NCBI GenBank assembly: GCA_963082975.1
Contig: OY720346.1
Location: 41,691,787-41,755,786 of the forward strand
Direction of reading: 5' to 3'
DNA from: Labia minor
Lineage: Eukaryota; Arthropoda; Insecta; Dermaptera; Spongiphoridae
Length of the DNA: 64,000 nucleotides
A program made the translations under genes and the position numbers. The notes under the pieces were generated by a model. That model was not told where the DNA came from. It was given only the letters and a program-made list of their open reading frames with translations, and did no database searches. This document shows, one piece after another, positions 270 through 56,994 of this stretch (position 1 is the first letter of the stretch; each line of letters begins with the position of its first letter).

Positions 270-540
270 TAGTCTGATAGCGAATGTAGTGGTAGATATG
301 TAACAGGAAGTAGATTTCGTTGAAGAGATTGAAAGTAATCGTTGCTGGGTTGAAAAGTTGAGAAAAGTGAGCAAGCAATCTTGGCAAAGGAATGAGCAAG
401 AAGCAAACGCCCGCGGGGTGAATGGAATGGGTTTAAGGGCCGAAGGTAGTTTAAAAGCCCCACCACTATCATGTTTAAGTAAAAAGGGCTGACATGAAAT
501 GGAACCTTAACGGTAGGCGTGGACTGAAAATACATTCATC
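270..540. other. Higher-GC unique island, candidate conserved non-coding element
   Basis: This block differs clearly from its AT-rich surroundings in base composition and contains no tandem repeat or TE terminus. An 88-codon frame on the minus strand spans it, but it has no signal peptide, domain or codon pattern that I recognise. The sequence is purine-biased on the plus strand (repeated GAAG, GGGTTTAAGGG and GGCCGAAGG-like words). The regulatory interpretation is inference; an unrecognised exon is the alternative. Confidence 0.3.
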
Positions 541-1589
541 AATCCCCTCCAATTCCACCCCTTCCACTGAGGAATACAACTAAAATCAAATTTCAAAGAA
601 TATGAAACACTATATTTTGTATTTCTTTTTTTTTTCTAAAAGAAAGTCAAATAAATAAATAAAGTTGTATTTTGTAAAATTATTGTAATTAGATCTCGAT
701 TAATAGCAATTCAAATGAAATAAATTTACGAATCAATTTCTATTAATTTTAGCTGAATCCACTTTACTTATATACAATTTATATTATATTTATTTATATA
801 TTTTTATTTTTATTATATATAAAATTGTTAAAATTCATTCAAATAAAATTATACAAATATTCATTTTGAAAATTGTTTTTTTATTTTTTTTAATAATTGT
901 AATTTTAATAATATTCCAATGTTTATTTTTTCAAAGTAAATATTAAACCTGAATATGGGTATATTTTCAGAAATATACATATTTATCTAGTAATATGTAG
1001 AAATGAAAATTCCTTCCTGAGATAAAAGGAATCATGTCACCTCGGTGATTTGATTGATCACCATCCATCATTTGAATTGTTTTGAGAAATTCTATCTCCA
1101 CCAGGAAATTAAAATTTCAACAGATCTATTGAAAATAAAAATATAATATTATATATTGAATAAACCAATCTTTCTACCTGAATAACACCCCCTCAAAATT
1201 ACTTATATTTCACAATGGTTTAGAATTAAAAATTGTTTGCACTATTAAATTATTATTTTTTCTTAAACTTATATAATTAAAAAATAGAAATATAAGAGTT
1301 TTAGTGTTATCAATTATTGTCCTTCTCTATCCAAACTTGAAAATTACAAAACAAATTCTTACTAGATTTCTAACATATTATTATAATAAATATTGAATAA
1401 ATTTATGAATATTACATTTATTAAAATTGTACTTATTTCTTTCAACGAATAGTTTAAGAAATTTGAAATCTTCCATATAATATGTTTGAATAAATAAAAA
1501 AAAACACAGATATATTTTTACAGAAAGCGAATAAGTTTATTATATAAGATTTATTTTATAATGTGATTTCAAATATATAATATAAATAT
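541..1589. other. AT-rich intergenic, nothing recognised
   Basis: About 1 kb of AT-rich sequence with homopolymer tracts. No coding frame, TE end or RNA gene can be supported. Confidence 0.5.
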
Positions 1590-2060
1590 CTTTCTATCTC
1601 TGTGGCTATACGGAACTCGAAAGTTCTTGGACGCAGTAACCACATTTTTCCAAGTGTCCCTATCCTGAGCCACAACCATCCAACCCCTACTCTCTCCCAT
1701 CTCTCTCACATCCTTTCCCTCATTATCCACCCACCGTGTCCTTGGTCTTCCAAGTGAACGTTTCCCACTCGGTCTCCCTACCAATATATTTTTTGCCATT
1801 CTATCTTCTCTCATTCTAGCCATGTGTCCTGTCCACCGTAGCGTTCTCGATTTTATAATTCTAACTATATTTGGAGATGCATAGAGGTCATGCAATTCCT
1901 CGTTTTGCAGTCTTCTCCATTTCCCGTCGACCTCATCTTTCTTTGACCCATAAATGCTCTTATTCTCAAATACTCTAAATCTACTCTTCGTCTCCCAGGG
2001 CCATAGACCATGCCTCACAACCATATAATACAACCCACAAAATAATTGTTTTATAAATTA
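1569..2060 (-). pseudogene. LINE reverse transcriptase C-terminal fragment (decayed)
   Basis: The minus strand encodes the C-terminal tail of a CFDP2/RTE-type endonuclease-reverse transcriptase, a protein that copies LINE RNA into DNA at a nicked target. Recognisable pieces are the FRVFEN block, KKDEVDGKWRRL, NEELHDLYASPN, a W-x-GHMARM block and the final GKRSLGRPRTRW motif. The endonuclease and catalytic RT domains are absent, so the copy is 5'-truncated as usual for LINEs. The frame has no ATG at its beginning and the upstream residues are garbled compared with the copy at 51.1-51.3 kb, so it is dead. The same segment recurs at 8.5, 17.4, 26.1, 27.5, 38.3 and 50.9 kb. Confidence 0.85.
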
Positions 2061-2730
2061 TACTTTGATAATAATTTGGACGAGATAAGCCTCAGTGCTG
2101 CATGATAACAGGCGTTACCCGATCGATTTAAATTCTTCTCGAATATTATTATCCTTCATGATACAGAATCTACGTATTTAATTTTTTTAAATTTTTCTAC
2201 ATTTTTAAATTCTAATAATATAAATATATTTGTTGAAAAATATTTTACCAATCCTCAATCCATAATTTTATTTGATTGATTACCTTTCTATATTGATTTA
2301 TTTAAAATTCATAATAGTTCAATAATAATTAGAAACAAAGGAATTGTATTCTTTGTTCCTCCTCTTAGAATTAAAAGAAATAAAATATCAATTAAATGCA
2401 CATTAATCCCATTTTTAAATTCACTTTATGCTCATTTGCACAAATCACTTGCCTTGAATTCTATATTTTCTTATCCCTTATTTGGAGTTTTCTTTTAATA
2501 AAATTTTAATCAATATTCATAAAATATTTTCCTCTCCTCTTCCATTGGGGTATCTAACGTATTAAAAATATATAAAAGATTCATTTGAACTCGCACAGAG
2601 TAACTTTAGGCATATTGCCAGGGAAGATTTATTAGAACAAGAATAATGAACAAACTTGTTTGATTAATTGCAATTAATCAAAATACACTCACACATAGAA
2701 CCAACAACATCCATTTATTCATTCCTCTCA
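2061..2730. other. AT-rich intergenic, nothing recognised
   Basis: AT-rich spacer between a LINE remnant and a dinucleotide repeat. No feature is supported. Confidence 0.45.
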
Positions 2731-2755
2731 AAATATATATATATATATGTATAAA

Positions 2756-2809
<54 letters not shown>

Positions 2810-2818
2810 AGAGAGAGC
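2731..2818. repeat. Microsatellite (TA)n followed by (GA)n
   Basis: Two AT-dinucleotide runs separated by a short interruption (GTATAAACGA) and followed by GAAAGAGAGAGC. The longer run covers about 2759-2805. Confidence 0.95.
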
Positions 2819-3540
2819 AAGGCAAGAATAAAGTAACCCTTATTAAATCAAAATGTTTATTACAAATTAGTGAGTTGCTTATGAGAATAATTTAATAATG
2901 AAATGTAATTAGTATAACCACCCTGGTTGAAAATAAAAATAAATACTCAATTGCTAAAGAGTATAAGGTCGTCGTCTAATTAATATCTCTTGACAAAAAT
3001 GTTGAGAAAAGTGAAAATGTAAAAATAATATTATATATTGTACTATTAGATAATAAATTTTTAAAATTTCATTTATTAATATTTATTTATACCAGTATAA
3101 TGAAAATTAAAAAAAAAAAAGTTTTATTGTTATTATAATTCCCCGGAATACAGAAATGGATATTTTTATCTTTTTTACAATTTTTGTTTTTTTAATTAAT
3201 TCTATAATTCTTTTTTTTTTTTAAAAACAAAATTATTTTTTGAGTTTTTGATTAAATTTATTATTATGTATTATAATTATATTTATTATATTTATATAAT
3301 TTAATTGAGGCCGATTTTTATCAAATAATCCCTTTCGTCCAACAAATGAATCAATATTTGAAAAATAACCTGAAAGTGTTATTTTTTTATTATTTTCAGT
3401 TTATTGTCGTCATTTTATAATCAATTTTTAGCTTTTGTGGTGGAAATAATTTTTTACATAAATGTTTCTATTAAATTTCAATTGTATAATTATCCAAATT
3501 AGAATATTTAATTGTAATTGATACAATCTAAACAGTAAGT

Positions 3541-12509: not shown

Positions 12510-13208
12510 TTACTCATCCAACACTATGTTCCACATCTTATTAAGTCTATATCCATCCTCTTTGTTAATATTATTGGGATGATTATCAATTTCTATAGAT
12601 TCTTTTATTTTTCTTTTCCACCAATTATTTTCAATATGAAGTGTTTCTACATTATCTAAATTTATTTTATGTCCTGTTGTTAAGGCATGTTCTGCAATTG
12701 CTGATTGATTTGGATGTTTCAATCTAATGGCTCTCTCATGTTCAGACAGTCTTGTAGAAATCTTTCTACTTGTTTCACCAATGTATACTTTTTTGCATTC
12801 ACAAGTTACCTTATAAACTCCATTATTTTCGTTTTTAATTTTGTCTTTTATATTTGAGGTGAGAGAAGACATTTGTTTATGAGGTTTATATGTTACTCTG
12901 ATGTTGTGTTTCCTCAATTTTGACGCTATTTTTTCTGTTGTTCCTTTTATATAAGGTAATGTTATTTGTGATCTGTATATTGGTTTTTCATTTTCATTTT
13001 TGATTTCTGTCTTTTTTGTTTTACTGAATTTCCTAATTTCATATTCCGAGAAGCCATTGTTTATGAAAGCTTCCTTCAATCGTTGTTTTTCTTTTTTAAT
13101 GTTTTCATTTGAGCATATCTCTTCGGCTCTTTTGTGCAGTGTTTTTATCACTCCATATTTTTGTGATGGATGGTGGTGGGAATCTGCGTGGATATATCTG
13201 TTGGTGTG
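12510..13208 (-). pseudogene. Penelope-like RT thumb plus GIY-YIG endonuclease, truncated
   Basis: The frame is open from the inner edge of the right arm and has no ATG at its beginning, as expected of a truncated polyprotein. It begins VHTNRYIHADSHHHP, continues with KTLHKRAEEICS (end of the RT domain) and a linker LPYIKGTTEKIASKLRK. The GIY-YIG endonuclease core follows: GVYKVTCECKKVYIGET, with downstream Arg-rich helix SRKISTRLSEH and HALTTGHKIN. The endonuclease nicks target DNA for reverse transcription in this family. It ends KMWNIVLDE at a stop. The catalytic YxDD part of the RT is deleted, so the copy is not autonomous. Identification rests on the conserved RT-to-endonuclease linker and the GIY-YIG residues. 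Confidence 0.85.
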
Positions 13209-13325
13209 TACGGTTACTTGAAAACGACTGCAGAATAAGCAGTTGAAACGTTGTACAATTATTTTAATTTAATAAATAATTTTATACAAATAATGTGGTC
13301 TTTTAATAAAAATTCTCTTAATAAT
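13208..13325 (-). repeat. Penelope-like terminal arm, right
   Basis: Inverted copy of 12120-12237. The truncated coding frame begins right at the inner edge of this arm. Confidence 0.85.
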
Positions 13326-52298: not shown

Positions 52299-52534
52299 CA
52301 GTGTGACGCAACCTTTTCTTACCTACGGCACACAATAATTGTTCCTAGAATTTTGCGGCACCTCAAAAGCTGAAATATATATATATATGTTCAGTGGCGT
52401 ACTTGGAACTTTTGCCGCCCGGGGCGATCTCCAGTTTGCCGCCCTTTTTATTATAAGTCAATCAAATAGTGGTATTTATAAATTAATGCACATAAATAAA
52501 TTATTAAGTTATTTAATCAATATTAATTAATACA

Positions 52535-52600
52535 GGGAGGCAGGGTAGCCGAGAGTGTAAGATACCAAGTTTCTACACAAGAAGTCGGCGTTCGAATCCA
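52535..52600 (+). promoter_or_regulatory. tRNA-like 5' head with RNA polymerase III-type boxes
   Basis: TAGCCGAGAGTG (about 52546-52557) matches an A box and CGTTCGAATCC (about 52589-52599) matches a B box. The distance between them is that of a tRNA gene. The T-arm stem around the B box is poorly paired, so this is not a functional tRNA. It lies inside the LINE target duplication, directly at the 5' end. I infer an internal promoter acquired from a tRNA or SINE. Confidence 0.6.
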
Positions 52601-52663
52601 ACTAAGAACAAAAATTTTCAATTTAATTTAATTTAACATCAGCTGCCTCCGACAAGCCCCACC

Positions 52664-52816
52664 ATGGATGTCACCTTTATTGTGTTGGGGGGCTTCGACT
52701 TAACTAAGAACATCCACGTCTCGGAGATGAAGACTAGCAATCTACTCAAGAGACGCAAATCACAATTGCTCAAAGAACCACACACAGCCTCGGAAATTGG
52801 ATTGATAACACATTGA
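52664..52816 (+). CDS. Short ATG frame overlapping the start of the LINE frame
   Basis: A 50-codon frame starts with ATG in the context ACCATGG, close to the best animal start context, and reads MDVTFIVLGGFDLTKN... to a TGA at 52814-52816. It overlaps the long LINE frame, which is open from 52738, in the frame one base back. It contains a basic stretch LLKRRKSQLLK. It may be an upstream frame, a vestigial first protein, or the true N-terminus separated by a one-base change. No domain is recognised. Confidence 0.45.
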   Translation: MDVTFIVLGGFDLTKNIHVSEMKTSNLLKRRKSQLLKEPHTASEIGLITH

Positions 52817-55653
52817 CGACACGGCAACGAACCAGGAACAGAATAAAGGAATTCAAAAGAAAAAACACTCTTAGATTTGGCAGTTGGAATATAATGTCAT
52901 GGAACTCGAAGAACCAAGACGTCATTATGGAGATGTCCCACAACAACATAGATATTTGCGCTGTTTCCGAAACAAAGAAGAAAGGAAAAGGATCCCAAAC
53001 CATCGGGGATTACATCTTTATCTACAGTGGAAAACCTAAAGATAGCAGAGGCTCAGCGGGAGTTGGTCTGATTCTAAACAAAAGATTCATAGACGAAATT
53101 CGTAATGTACGTTACATCAGTGACAGAATATTATCAGTTTCAATAACATTGAGAAACAAACATCTGCATATACTCAGTGTATATGCACCTGATATAAGCA
53201 AAAGCAAAGAAATTAGAGAAGAATTCTATGCCGACCTTCACGATGAAGTCCAAGCAATACCGAACGACGAATATTTAATCATCATGGGAGATCTAAATGC
53301 TAGAGTTGGTAACGAAACAATCCCGGGAGTAATGCAGCGCTTTAATGAGGAAACAAAAAATGAGAACGGTGATCTACTAATTGACCTTTGCTGCCAGAAC
53401 AGTCTGAGAATAAATAACACCTTCTTCTCTCACCAGTGGAAACACAAGTATACCTGGAGCAATAGCAGAGGTCAAAAGACAGTGCTAGATTACTTCATAA
53501 CAAACCGCTGCTTTCTACCCCATCAGATAATGGACGTACGTGCCCTTAATGCACCAGACATCGGGAGCGACCACAAACTCATGCTATTAAAAATAAGGCT
53601 TAGTCATAACATAAGCAAAAGACGGTCACCTATATATAGAGAGAAAATGAATATCGAGTCTCTAGAAAATGAATCTACTAGGAGCCTTTACAAAATGCGT
53701 CTTGATGGAAAAATTCTCCAAAACACCATAAGCCCGGATGACTCAGTGGATAGAGCCTGGGAAAAAATCAAGAACAATATTACCTCAGCGGCCGAAGAGG
53801 CGCTTGGAAAAAGAAAAGTCAATCTAAGGCAAAGACCTAATAAAACTTCTTGGTTTACATCTGAAGTTAAAGAAATAGCAGAGAGAAAAAGAAAGGCTTT
53901 CTTAAAGTGGAAGAATACAGGAAAACCAGAAGACAGAGAATCTTACGTTCATGAAAGAAACATAGCTAACCTTCTCATTCGTGAAATTAAACAAGACTAT
54001 TGGGAGAGATTCACCAAACATATGGAGAGCGATCTCTATGGTGCACAACGTAAAGTTTGGAAATTATTACGTGGCAATAAAGCACATATTAGTGAAAACC
54101 TAAATATCTTCAATATTAACAAAACTCAATGGCTTGAACATTTTAAGAAAATATATGACGCAGATCATCTAGATTTAGAGGATTATGAAAATAACATACC
54201 CGAAGCAGACACTCCTTACAGCCTCAATCAGACGACAGAAATAAACGAAATTGAAGTAGAAATGACTATAAATAAGTTAAAAAACAGAAAGGCCCCAGGG
54301 ATTGACGGAATCACAAATGAACTGATCAAATATGGGGGAAATAATCTGGCACTTGAACTGACTAAATTATTTAAATTAATTCTCCAAGAATCTCGGACTC
54401 CTAAGGAATGGAAAACAAGCATAACTATCCCAATCTTCAAAAGAGGTGATAAAAACCTACCAACTAATTATAGGGGTATCACGCTTCTCAGCGCAATATT
54501 AAAAGTATTAACCAAGATCATACTGAACAAACTAGAACCTATAATGAAGCCCAGTGAAGAACAACAGGGATTCAGAAAAAATCGCTCGATCATAGATGCT
54601 TTGTTCATCATCCGGCAAGTAGCGGAAAAGTCGATAGAATTCGCCAAACCTGCATTCATGTGCTTCGTTGACCTTACCAAGGCCTTCGATCGAGTCCGTT
54701 TAAAAGATGTCCTGACAATCCTGGAAAAGAAAAAGGCTCCTCGCGATCTATTGGCTATAATAAAAGAAATGAACACAGAAACTGAAACCAAGATAAGAAC
54801 AGAGGACGGGATTACCTCTTCAATCAAAACCACTATTGGCGTAAGACAAGGAGATTCCCTTAGCCCTGCTCTATTCAACTTGATAATGGACAAGATAATC
54901 TCGAAAATTAGACAAATGAACGGCTACTGGTTGGGCGACCACAAGTTAAATATCATTTGCTATGCTGACGACGCTGTCCTAATCGCCGAGTCAGAAGACG
55001 ACCTACAAAGATTGCTCCATCAATTTAACATCACCGCCAAGCAGTTTAATATGGCAATTTCGGCTGAAAAGACAAAATCACTCGTTATATCAAAAGAACC
55101 TTCTCGCTGTAAACTTGAGTTGGAACGGAAGGTCATCGAGCAAGTGATGTCGTTTAAATATCTCGGTTGCCAAATATCCAGCGACCGCAACTTGATCAAC
55201 GAGGTGAAAAATCAGACCATCAAAGGAAGCCAAATATCAGGCTACTTACGTGACGTAGTCTGGAGGAACAAATATATGAATATCGAAGCCAAGGTTAAAA
55301 TATACAAAACGATAGTAAGACCAGTTTTGACTTATGGGGCGGAAACTCGAGCTGACACGGAAAAGACGAAGCAGCTACTACGGGCGGCGGAAATGAATAC
55401 TATAAGGAGCATAACTGGAGTGACACGATGGGACAGAGTGAGAAACCAAGATGTCAGGGATGAGTGTGATGTGCAAGACATCGGCAAATGGGTTAAAGCT
55501 CGCCGTAAAAAATGGAACGAGCATGTAGGAAGAGCCAACGCGGAAGGGCTCTTGAGAATAGCCCGGGATGGAAGGCCAGCAACACGAAGACCAAGAGGAA
55601 GGCCACCGAAAAGATGGGCTGACAGCTGGGCGTCCTCTTCCCAAGAGACCTGA
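52738..55653 (+). CDS. LINE endonuclease-reverse transcriptase
   Basis: The frame is open after a TAG at 52735 and runs without a stop to 55653. Residues are numbered from the TTG codon at 52813, giving 946. An AP-type endonuclease occupies about 20-265: SWNI (N26), SETK (E53), YAPD (D127), GDLNARVG (D160, N162), TWSN, LDYF and SDHK (D253, H254). This domain nicks target DNA. The reverse transcriptase covers about 480-760: KAPGIDGI, GFRKNRSI, FVDLTKAFDRV (D620), RQGDSLSPALFN and YADD (717-720). The C-terminus has VLTYGAET and ends with the basic RPRGRPPKRW block; no zinc knuckle is seen. All catalytic residues are present. Oddity: the first in-frame ATG is codon 28, after the catalytic N26, so the start must be non-ATG, shifted from the 52664 frame, or lost. 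Confidence 0.92.
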   Translation, partial: QSTQETQITIAQRTTHSLGNWIDNTLTTRQRTRNRIKEFKRKNTLRFGSWNIMSWNSKNQDVIMEMSHNNIDICAVSETKKKGKGSQTIGDYIFIYSGKPKDSRGSAGVGLILNKRFIDEIRNVRYISDRILSVSITLRNKHLHILSVYAPDISKSKEIREEFYADLHDEVQAIPNDEYLIIMGDLNARVGNETIPGVMQRFNEETKNENGDLLIDLCCQNSLRINNTFFSHQWKHKYTWSNSRGQKTVLDYFITNRCFLPHQIMDVRALNAPDIGSDHKLMLLKIRLSHNISKRRSPIYREKMNIESLENESTRSLYKMRLDGKILQNTISPDDSVDRAWEKIKNNITSAAEEALGKRKVNLRQRPNKTSWFTSEVKEIAERKRKAFLKWKNTGKPEDRESYVHERNIANLLIREIKQDYWERFTKHMESDLYGAQRKVWKLLRGNKAHISENLNIFNINKTQWLEHFKKIYDADHLDLEDYENNIPEADTPYSLNQTTEINEIEVEMTINKLKNRKAPGIDGITNELIKYGGNNLALELTKLFKLILQESRTPKEWKTSITIPIFKRGDKNLPTNYRGITLLSAILKVLTKIILNKLEPIMKPSEEQQGFRKNRSIIDALFIIRQVAEKSIEFAKPAFMCFVDLTKAFDRVRLKDVLTILEKKKAPRDLLAIIKEMNTETETKIRTEDGITSSIKTTIGVRQGDSLSPALFNLIMDKIISKIRQMNGYWLGDHKLNIICYADDAVLIAESEDDLQRLLHQFNITAKQFNMAISAEKTKSLVISKEPSRCKLELERKVIEQVMSFKYLGCQISSDRNLINEVKNQTIKGSQISGYLRDVVWRNKYMNIEAKVKIYKTIVRPVLTYGAETRADTEKTKQLLRAAEMNTIRSITGVTRWDRVRNQDVRDECDVQDIGKWVKARRKKWNEHVGRANAEGLLRIARDGRPATRRPRGRPPKRWADSWASSSQET

Positions 55654-55688
55654 GGTAGTGAAGAAGAACAGGCCTTAGGCCTATAATA

Positions 55689-55707
55689 GAAGAAGAAGAA
55701 GAAGAAG
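55689..55707 (+). repeat. (GAA)n LINE 3' tail
   Basis: Six GAA/AGAA units end the LINE and abut the right target duplication. Confidence 0.9.
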
Positions 55708-56994
55708 AATTAATACACAGAGTAAATTTTAAACCTAGCAGACCGCCTTCCGCCGGCCCTGATTTTCAAAAGAAAAATCGATGATTTAAAAAAATATTGG
55801 TATATCACTTCAAAGTAATCATATAAACTTTTCAAAAGAAATGACATTTATAAACTGGTATCAAAAAATTTTAGTTAGGAAAAATTGCTGAACAAAATCG
55901 TAAAGATGCGTTTACGAATTCAACGAATTTTAATGAATACAATAAAATAAAATTATTATCCTGTTCTTGGAATTAGAATTCAAAATTTACACTAAATTGC
56001 ATTTATATACACCGAGGAATAATATTCGAAATCATATGTTGATCATAATTTATATAAATCAAATAGTAAACTTATAATAATCATAATAATCATTTATTAT
56101 TCAAGAAAGAAAAAAAATAAATATGAAATGAATAAGTTGCTTTTTACAACTATAACTAAATATAAAAAATGCCGCCCCAAGATAAGTGCCGCCCGGTGCG
56201 GACCGCACCCACCGCACCCCCCTAGGTACGCCACTGTATATGTAGGTTTGAAGGTAGAAATTAATTTAATAGGTTTGTTTGCGCAAGGGCGCGTATAGTA
56301 CGTGTGCTATACAGGTGACAAGCGCTTGTATTTATAATCTCAGAAAAATGTCACTAATAGAAATGACAATAAACTTACATATAAAATTATGCGGATTTCT
56401 AAAAGTTACTTTTGATCGCGGCGGCACACCTGTATCACCTTTAAGGCACACCGGTTGCGGAGCACTGTGGTTTAGACTATACTTATACGTAATTTAAAGT
56501 TATTTTCATTTCTTTTGGGTTCTCAGTTACAAAACTAATATATATATATATAGATAAATTTATAGATTATATTATGAATAAACATTTCAAATAATCTGTA
56601 AATAAATTATGAAAATACTGTAATCTGTTAGAACTAATCATTCATTTGAATTATATATATATAAGGCATAACTTGTTCTGAGTGACACTCGATGCTTTGA
56701 TTTATTTAACTTTAATTAGAAACGCCAGTGAATCTCCTTTCCATCCGTGTGACAGGTGTCAAATACTCATGGATATTCAGAACAATTTCAATAAATTAAA
56801 ATGAAATTTACCCTATGGAATCATTTTGAAAAAAATACAATCATTTTAGATAGGAATCTGAACTGATAATAAAAATAAATGAAATTATATTACTTTCCGA
56901 AAATTTAGATAGAATTTTAAGTATGTTATGTTTTATAAAAAGAGGAAGAGTACCGGTAAAGGTAATACATAATAAATATTTATGTTATTATTTA

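What the first reader, a model, noticed from the sequence alone, without database searches (positions are those of the whole stretch)
52535..55707. Full-length LINE whose 5' end is a tRNA-like pol III promoter head, inside one target duplication
Seen: a 10-bp duplication AATTAATACA brackets a 3.17-kb unit that begins with tRNA-like A and B boxes at tRNA spacing and ends in (GAA)n. Known: tRNA heads belong to SINEs, while LINEs normally use internal pol II promoters. Inference: either this LINE family uses a tRNA-derived promoter, or a SINE-LINE template switch made a chimera that inserted as one unit. Such a unit could be a source of new SINEs sharing the LINE tail.
Basis: partly seen in the sequence, partly recalled or inferred. 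Interest (0 to 1): 0.7.

Follow-up and report, generated by a model that had tools for sequence, protein, structure and literature searches.

The report
LINE wearing a SINE promoter head
A complete, protein-coding jumping gene in this eukaryote starts with the promoter-like head of a short parasitic element, and shortened copies of it look like newly born parasites of the same kind.

Summary
A 10-bp duplication (AATTAATACA) brackets a 3,173-bp unit, and its empty site occurs 269 times elsewhere in copies of the surrounding repeat, so head, coding region and (GAA)n tail inserted as one piece. The unit is an RTE-like LINE (endonuclease plus reverse transcriptase, one open 971-aa frame). Its first ~117 nt are a tRNA-like head (A and B boxes, no cloverleaf match) plus an AT-rich linker.

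Both copies found that reach the 5' end carry the head. Yet the head mostly occurs without the LINE: 1,825 heads against 281 LINE-type bodies. Of 20 sampled heads, 17 belong to a different ~286-bp SINE ("SINE-X"), 2 to a ~520-bp SINE made of the LINE's two ends, 1 to neither. The join lies about where a sister RTE family begins.

Older and younger shortened derivatives follow older and modern LINE sequence. Pol III transcription of the LINE is plausible (same start site, few T-runs) but unproven. My ten paper searches showed no headed autonomous LINE.

The parts
52525..52534 (.). left copy of the target-site duplication AATTAATACA
   Evidence: empty site found 269 times
52535..52609 (+). tRNA-like head (unit 1-75); A box at 52546-52556, B box at 52590-52598
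   Evidence: shared with SINE-X and with the bipartite SINEs
52610..52651 (+). AT-rich linker (unit 76-117), still shared with SINE-X up to ...CATCAGCTGCCTCC; holds the TTTT run at 52615-52618
52652..52672 (+). join between the SINE-type head/linker and the RTE 5' region
   Evidence: SINE-X similarity ends at unit ~117-119; sister RTE family A begins 10-18 nt before the next motif
52673..52695 (+). RTE 5'-region motif (ACCTTTATTGTGTTGGGGGGCTT): 18/23 identical here and 20/23 in sister family A to the SINE form CACCTTGTCGTGTTGGGGGGCTT; best chance matches in other loci 12-13/23
52664..52816 (+). 50-aa ORF1-like frame (MDVTFIV...LITH) overlapping the long frame
   Evidence: significance not tested
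52738..55653 (+). 971-aa open frame: endonuclease (Pfam Exo_endo_phos, aa 48-279) and reverse transcriptase (RVT_1, aa 570-813)
55482..55707 (+). 3' segment (unit 2948-3173, includes the last ~170 nt of the frame) that the young bipartite SINE keeps
55689..55707 (+). (GAA)n tail
55708..55717 (.). right copy of the target-site duplication AATTAATACA
52392..56236 (.). host repeat into which the LINE inserted: CAGTGGCGTAC-type inverted ends, TATATGTT/TATATGTA flanks (hAT-like by eye)

Best explanation
This is an RTE-like LINE lineage that carries the promoter-type head of a tRNA-like SINE in front of its own RTE 5' region. Shown: the head and linker (unit 1 to ~117) are shared with a separate, much more numerous SINE (SINE-X) whose body and tail are unrelated; the join lies about where a sister RTE family starts; both full-length LINE copies found carry the head; the window copy inserted as one unit; and a ~520-bp SINE consists of the LINE's 5' ~299 nt and 3' ~226 nt. 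Inferred: an RNA-level template switch or recombination joined SINE head and LINE; the head supplies a type 2 pol III start (A box at +12, the same first base in LINE and SINE copies) from which full-length LINE RNA is at least sometimes made; the LINE protein copies it back by target-primed reverse transcription; and internal deletions of the headed LINE give SINEs that keep the promoter at one end and the recognised 3' end at the other, so that they spread with the LINE's protein.
For: Single insertion: duplication and 269 empty sites. Head without LINE: 1,825 head vs 281 LINE-body matches; 17/20 sampled heads have SINE-X body or tail, 2/20 the bipartite SINE, 1/20 neither. RTE start: sister family A has the 5' motif (20/23) 10-18 nt from its own 5' end. 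Persistence: 2 of 2 copies reaching the 5' end carry the head; derivative L090 carries it too. Same start: the window LINE starts at unit base 1, the C24 LINE at base 2, and the 30 young SINE copies match from base 1-3. Congruent histories: modern LINE + young SINE + L058 + L059 separate from old bipartite derivatives with support 100 (head), 85 (body) and 100 (tail), and the old LINE fragment L094 falls with the old derivatives in body and tail. Body is LINE-native: L094 is about equally far from LINE (86.3%) and young SINE (85.4%). SINE birth: L090 (327/3056) is 100% identical to the LINE. Pol III hints: coding frame has 2 TTTT runs and no T5 in 2,913 nt, against 27 TTTT and 8 T5 runs in 7,062 nt of three sister RTE frames, P = 0.0037 and 0.063; the TTTT at position 34 present in 16 of 17 SINE-X copies is absent from modern LINE and young SINE.
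Against: No transcript data. No tRNA cloverleaf by Rfam. A TTTT run remains 16 nt after the B box in LINE and young SINE, and SINE-X has T5 or T6 there in 15 of 17 copies yet spread, so T-runs may be poor terminators here, which weakens the T-run argument; within the LINE alone the TTTT shortfall is only P = 0.06 (2 vs 5.3 expected). Two of the three sister frames were cut by locus ends. Pol III RNA is normally uncapped, a problem for a 971-aa protein. No old LINE copy with head survives: L094 starts at unit 196. Divergence between LINE and young SINE is uneven (head 90.7%, linker 98%, 5' body 97.5%, frame-derived tail 89.5%), though L059 shows 95.0% and 95.3% for 5' and 3'. L090 has no target duplication, so it could be a deletion in place. 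In the body tree L102 falls among modern LINE copies with low support (30-33). Trees are unrooted.
Confidence: 0.6

Rival explanations
1. Recent capture by the LINE: the head belonged to SINE-X and to bipartite RTE-derived SINEs, as in the published pattern of tRNA heads on bipartite RTE sequences, and the autonomous LINE was headless until it recently took the 5' end of a bipartite SINE through recombination in the shared 5' body.
For: Heads are far commoner on SINEs than on LINEs. No old headed LINE is seen. LINE and young SINE are more alike in linker and 5' body (97-98%) than in the frame-derived tail (89.5%). Kojima 2020 describes heads being added to bipartite RTE derivatives (Discussion read).
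Against: Head, body and tail give the same split of modern against old elements, which needs no exchange if the LINE had the head all along. The LINE head is not nested inside the young SINE clade. L059 is equally distant from the LINE in its 5' and 3' parts (95.0%, 95.3%), and SINE-to-SINE comparisons also show faster tails.
Confidence: 0.3
2. Passenger head: the LINE is transcribed by pol II (own 5' region or neighbouring promoters) and the SINE-type head is only carried along at the 5' end.
For: A 971-aa frame needs translation; a TTTT run follows the B box; LINEs generally use pol II (established knowledge).
Against: LINE and SINE insertions begin at the same base, ~11 nt before the A box, so the template RNA started at the pol III-type start; a pol II start would have to coincide. 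Fewer T-runs than sister LINEs.
Confidence: 0.35
3. One-off chimera or assembly artefact at this locus.
For: Only two full-length headed copies, one of them on a 27.8-kb contig.
Against: Two independent sites with different duplications, the derivative L090, and 269 empty sites.
Confidence: 0.02

Closest known systems
Bipartite RTE-derived SINEs with small-RNA heads (hagfish SINE1-1_EBu, SINE2-9/10_EBu; Kojima 2020, PMC7245038: abstract, passages and Discussion seen; Kojima 2018, PMC5786205, not held, known from citation and recall)
   Same: Head from a pol III gene type, then 5' part and 3' part of an RTE LINE; formed by internal deletion plus chimera. The young SINE here fits this plan.
   Different: There the head is described on the short non-autonomous element; here the intact autonomous LINE carries it too.
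RTE-clade LINEs such as HaRTE1.1 of Helicoverpa armigera and its partner SINE HaSE1 (PMC3272025, passages seen)
   Same: RTE reverse transcriptase, short 3' UTR ending in trinucleotide repeats, partner tRNA-related SINE sharing the 3' end.
   Different: In the passages seen HaRTE1.1 is a 1,645-bp element with no tRNA-like head mentioned, and the shared 3' stretch is 43 bp; here both LINE ends are in the SINE.
U6/LINE-1 and tRNA/LINE-1 chimeric insertions in mammals (PMC13174262, passages seen)
   Same: Small-RNA sequence joined to the 5' end of a LINE and inserted as one unit with a target duplication.
   Different: Those are single loci; the tRNA pieces are mostly halves and mostly antisense. 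Here a sense, complete head is inherited by at least two full-length copies and a derivative.

Membership tests
RTE-clade LINE | apurinic-type endonuclease and reverse transcriptase in one frame | tested here: met
   Exo_endo_phos and RVT_1 in the 971-aa frame
RTE-clade LINE | no long ORF1, short 3' UTR ending in a short tandem repeat | tested here: met
   no other sense frame of 80 aa or more in the unit; frame stops at 55653, (GAA)n ends at 55707
RTE-clade LINE | reverse transcriptase falls in the RTE clade of a tree with named references | not tested
   no named RTE references at hand; assignment rests on anatomy, about 49-50% aa identity to three other families of this genome and recall
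RTE-clade LINE | target-primed insertion: target duplications and 5' truncation | tested here: met
   duplications at C4, C24 (7 nt), C1 and C9 (with a 13-nt filler); C1 and C9 5'-truncated
tRNA-derived SINE (SINE2) | A and B boxes at tRNA spacing near the 5' end | tested here: met
   positions 12 and 56
tRNA-derived SINE (SINE2) | head recognisable as a tRNA by structure model | tested here: not met
   no Rfam tRNA match in head, SINE or SINE-X copies tested
tRNA-derived SINE (SINE2) | short and non-coding | tested here: not met
   the unit is 3,173 bp with a 971-aa frame; it is not filed as a SINE
bipartite RTE-derived SINE (for the ~520-bp derivative, not for the unit) | head + LINE 5' part + LINE 3' part, uniform junction in many copies | tested here: met
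   30 copies fetched, mean 98.5% alike; 193 exact junctions
pol III-transcribed element | transcript starting at the head made by pol III | not testable with these tools
   no RNA data

The most novel reading that the evidence does not exclude
An autonomous protein-coding LINE has taken over the pol III promoter of a SINE, reversing the usual direction of parasitism: pol III makes its full-length RNA, terminator-like T-runs have been reduced along its 3 kb, and the lineage repeatedly sheds ready-made SINEs that already hold both promoter and LINE-recognised tail.
Probability: 0.3. Interest if true: 0.85.

Novelty: new variant of a known kind. Interest (0 to 1): 0.6.

Why it matters
SINEs are usually explained as a small-RNA head joined to a LINE tail, with the LINE as the exploited partner. 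Here the intact LINE itself carries the SINE-type head, so an internal deletion suffices to make a SINE. It gives a concrete natural case for two open questions: how bipartite RTE-type SINEs are born, and whether pol III can drive a LINE. The second has a mechanistic edge, because in human cells pol III-made RNAs need only ORF2p for retrotransposition while pol II-made ones also need ORF1p (Kroutter et al. 2009, PMC2666806, abstract seen), and this element has no long ORF1.

Tried and rejected
Rejected: (1) Three independent deletions giving the main SINE, L058 and L059. I first read them so, but an older derivative with junction ~311/2940 exists, and the younger junctions could descend from it by small deletions; only L090, L094, L102 and L103 have clearly different junctions. 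(2) C9 copy (L091) as a headless LINE variant: it starts at unit ~135 next to a target duplication with a 13-nt filler resembling the reverse complement of LINE sequence (10 of 11 by eye), so ordinary 5' truncation fits. (3) Head as a true tRNA gene: no ARAGORN or Rfam support. (4) Sister family B as having the same 5' motif: 13-14/23, no better than chance. (5) Fold of the head: z = -1.6, not informative. (6) Octopus LINE paper PMC9115989: passages seen, not relevant. (7) Pfam on the 12510-13268 frame: no hit.

Not obtained: count of SINE-X bodies, count of old-derivative junctions, and a tRNA gene scan of the genome; the search machine did not answer.
Full report
OBSERVATION. The unit is exactly 52535-55707, bracketed by AATTAATACA at 52525-52534 and 55708-55717. 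It sits inside another repeat (52392-56236, inverted ends CAGTGGCGTAC). The sequence expected before insertion, left flank plus right flank with one AATTAATACA, occurs 269 times in the genome at up to 3 mismatches; the 100 places listed are exact and the reversed control gives 0. So head, coding part and tail arrived together. The A and B boxes lie at unit positions 12 and 56; by shuffling, such a pair has a chance of about 0.5% in 130 nt (110 of 20,000). No tRNA model fits the head.

THE LINE. A 971-aa stop-to-stop frame (52738-55653) has endonuclease and reverse transcriptase domains and matches LINE-1 and R2 proteins of known structure. A 50-aa frame overlaps its start. Anatomy is RTE-like; the clade was not tested by a tree with named references. 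In this genome of 604 Mb (71 contigs, organism unnamed) the family is rare: at 97% identity or more the DNA searches found the window copy, C24 (full length, 97.8%), C9 (from unit ~135, 98.8%) and C1 (from unit 970, 99.9%); fragments are L095 (96%), L094 (83%) and more distant L096 and L097 (74% and 69%). The longest frames of the C24, C9 and C1 copies are 459, 797 and 715 aa. Both copies that reach the 5' end carry the head. One search scored 40 of 2,029 candidates; (endonuclease region) scored all 37 of its candidates and all 23, so these two are the better basis for 'no headless full-length copy found'.

THE HEAD ELSEWHERE. A 30-nt stretch of the head with the B box matches 1,825 places at up to 3 mismatches, while a 30-nt stretch of the LINE 5' body matches 281 (controls 0). 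I took 20 head places from the exact matches listed on contig C1, so the sample is from one contig and from exact matches only. By body and tail, 17 of 20 belong to SINE-X, about 286 bp, mean pairwise identity 91.8% for the 16 aligned; 2 of 20 (L105, L115) are the young bipartite SINE; 1 of 20 (L116) has neither. SINE-X shares unit 1 to ~117 at 84-88% identity, and nothing after it matched the LINE.

THE JOIN. SINE-X similarity ends at unit ~117-119. At unit ~139 begins a motif that sister RTE family A (L013-L024) has at 20/23, only 10-18 nt from its own 5' end; other loci give 12-14/23. Thus the head and linker sit where a headless relative would begin. Sister families A and B showed no such head at their 5' ends by eye.

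BIPARTITE DERIVATIVES. The young SINE (30 copies fetched, 96-100% alike, mean 98.5%; L079 and L080 share flanks, so 29 independent) is unit 1-299 joined, with a few extra bases, to unit 2948-3173, which includes LINE frame sequence. A target duplication of 9 nt or more flush with the element was found in 24 of 30 by script. Its junction occurs 193 times exactly. L058 and L059 are close relatives with other junctions. Sequence past the young junction occurs 12 times: five known loci plus seven that I fetched; five of these share a junction near 311/2940 at roughly 72-85% identity (L098-L101, L104; L098 keeps only unit 278-311 of the 5' side), and L102 and L103 differ. L090 joins unit 327 to 3056 with 100% identity to the window LINE but has no target duplication; L094 joins 782 to 2994 and has one.

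HISTORY. Separate trees of head, 5' body and tail give the same split: modern LINE, young SINE, L058, L059 and L090 against old derivatives, with support 100, 85 and 100. The old LINE fragment L094 goes with the old derivatives in body and tail. L102 is inconsistent: among modern copies in the body tree with support 30-33, with L094 in the tail tree with support 69. The trees are unrooted. In the head tree the SINE-X heads lie beyond the old derivatives. The simplest reading is that a headed LINE lineage produced bipartite SINEs at two times. Because no old LINE copy retains its 5' end, recent capture of the head by the LINE is not excluded.

HOW IT MIGHT WORK. The two full-length LINE copies and the 30 young SINE copies start within two bases of each other, about 11 nt before the A box, as expected of type 2 pol III initiation (established knowledge). 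The LINE frame has 2 TTTT runs in 2,913 nt; three sister frames have 7, 9 and 11 in 2,241, 2,130 and 2,691 nt (27 in 7,062; binomial P = 0.0037), and 0 against 8 runs of T5 or more (P = 0.063). Against codon-shuffled versions of itself the LINE's shortfall is weaker, 2 against 5.3, P = 0.06, and the first two sister frames are cut by locus ends. TTTT at position 34 is present in 16 of 17 SINE-X copies and T5 or T6 near 78 in 15 of 17; the modern lineage lacks the first and has TTTT for the second. This may reflect selection for read-through, but it also shows that elements with T5 spread, so T-runs may not stop pol III well in this organism. The LINE protein would recognise the shared 3' end of LINE and SINE; this is inferred from the shared tail and duplications.

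LITERATURE. Ten searches of the held library showed no autonomous LINE with a tRNA-like head among the listed titles and abstracts and the passages that I opened. Kojima 2020 (PMC7245038; abstract, passages, Discussion) describes bipartite RTE derivatives and their acquisition of heads from tRNA, 5S and 7SL RNA. Kojima 2018 is not held; I know it from citation and recall. Mammalian tRNA/LINE-1 chimeras are described in PMC13174262 (passages). Subscription papers and Repbase were not available, so absence from print is not established.

VERDICT. Real and unusual: new variant of a known kind. The parts (tRNA-like head, bipartite RTE SINE, LINE chimera) are known; their combination in an intact LINE lineage that also yields SINEs is what stands out. 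Pol III drive of the LINE remains the open step.

Noticed in passing
window 52392-56236: The LINE is nested in a repeat with inverted ends CAGTGGCGTAC and TATATGTT/TATATGTA flanks (hAT-like by eye); its empty site is present 269 times, and another copy (L085) carries a young SINE inserted at AAATAGTAAACT.
   Followed up: partly
window 12510-13268 (-): A 252-aa open frame that recalls by eye the GIY-YIG part of Penelope-like elements; Pfam gave no hit.
   Followed up: partly
L079 and L080 (C4:66665120-66666240 and C4:40139960-40141090): The same young SINE insertion with the same flanks at two places about 26.5 Mb apart on C4: segmental duplication or assembly error.
   Followed up: no
L098 1-320: An old derivative in which an inverted piece of SINE-X tail (97 nt, 93.8%) lies just before the LINE 5' body piece: another chimera between the two families.
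   Followed up: no
L103 349-400: A derivative that runs from LINE unit ~309 almost directly into the GAA-type tail, an extreme internal deletion.
   Followed up: no
SINE-X body, e.g. L109 from about position 135: The body stretch GCGGAAGGCAACGGGAAACCACCGC recalls RTE/BovB 5' sequence (from memory), so SINE-X may itself be a bipartite RTE-type SINE of another LINE.
   Followed up: no
L091 (C9 copy), before unit ~135: 13 extra nt between target duplication and 5'-truncated LINE, resembling an inverted bit of LINE sequence.
   Followed up: partly
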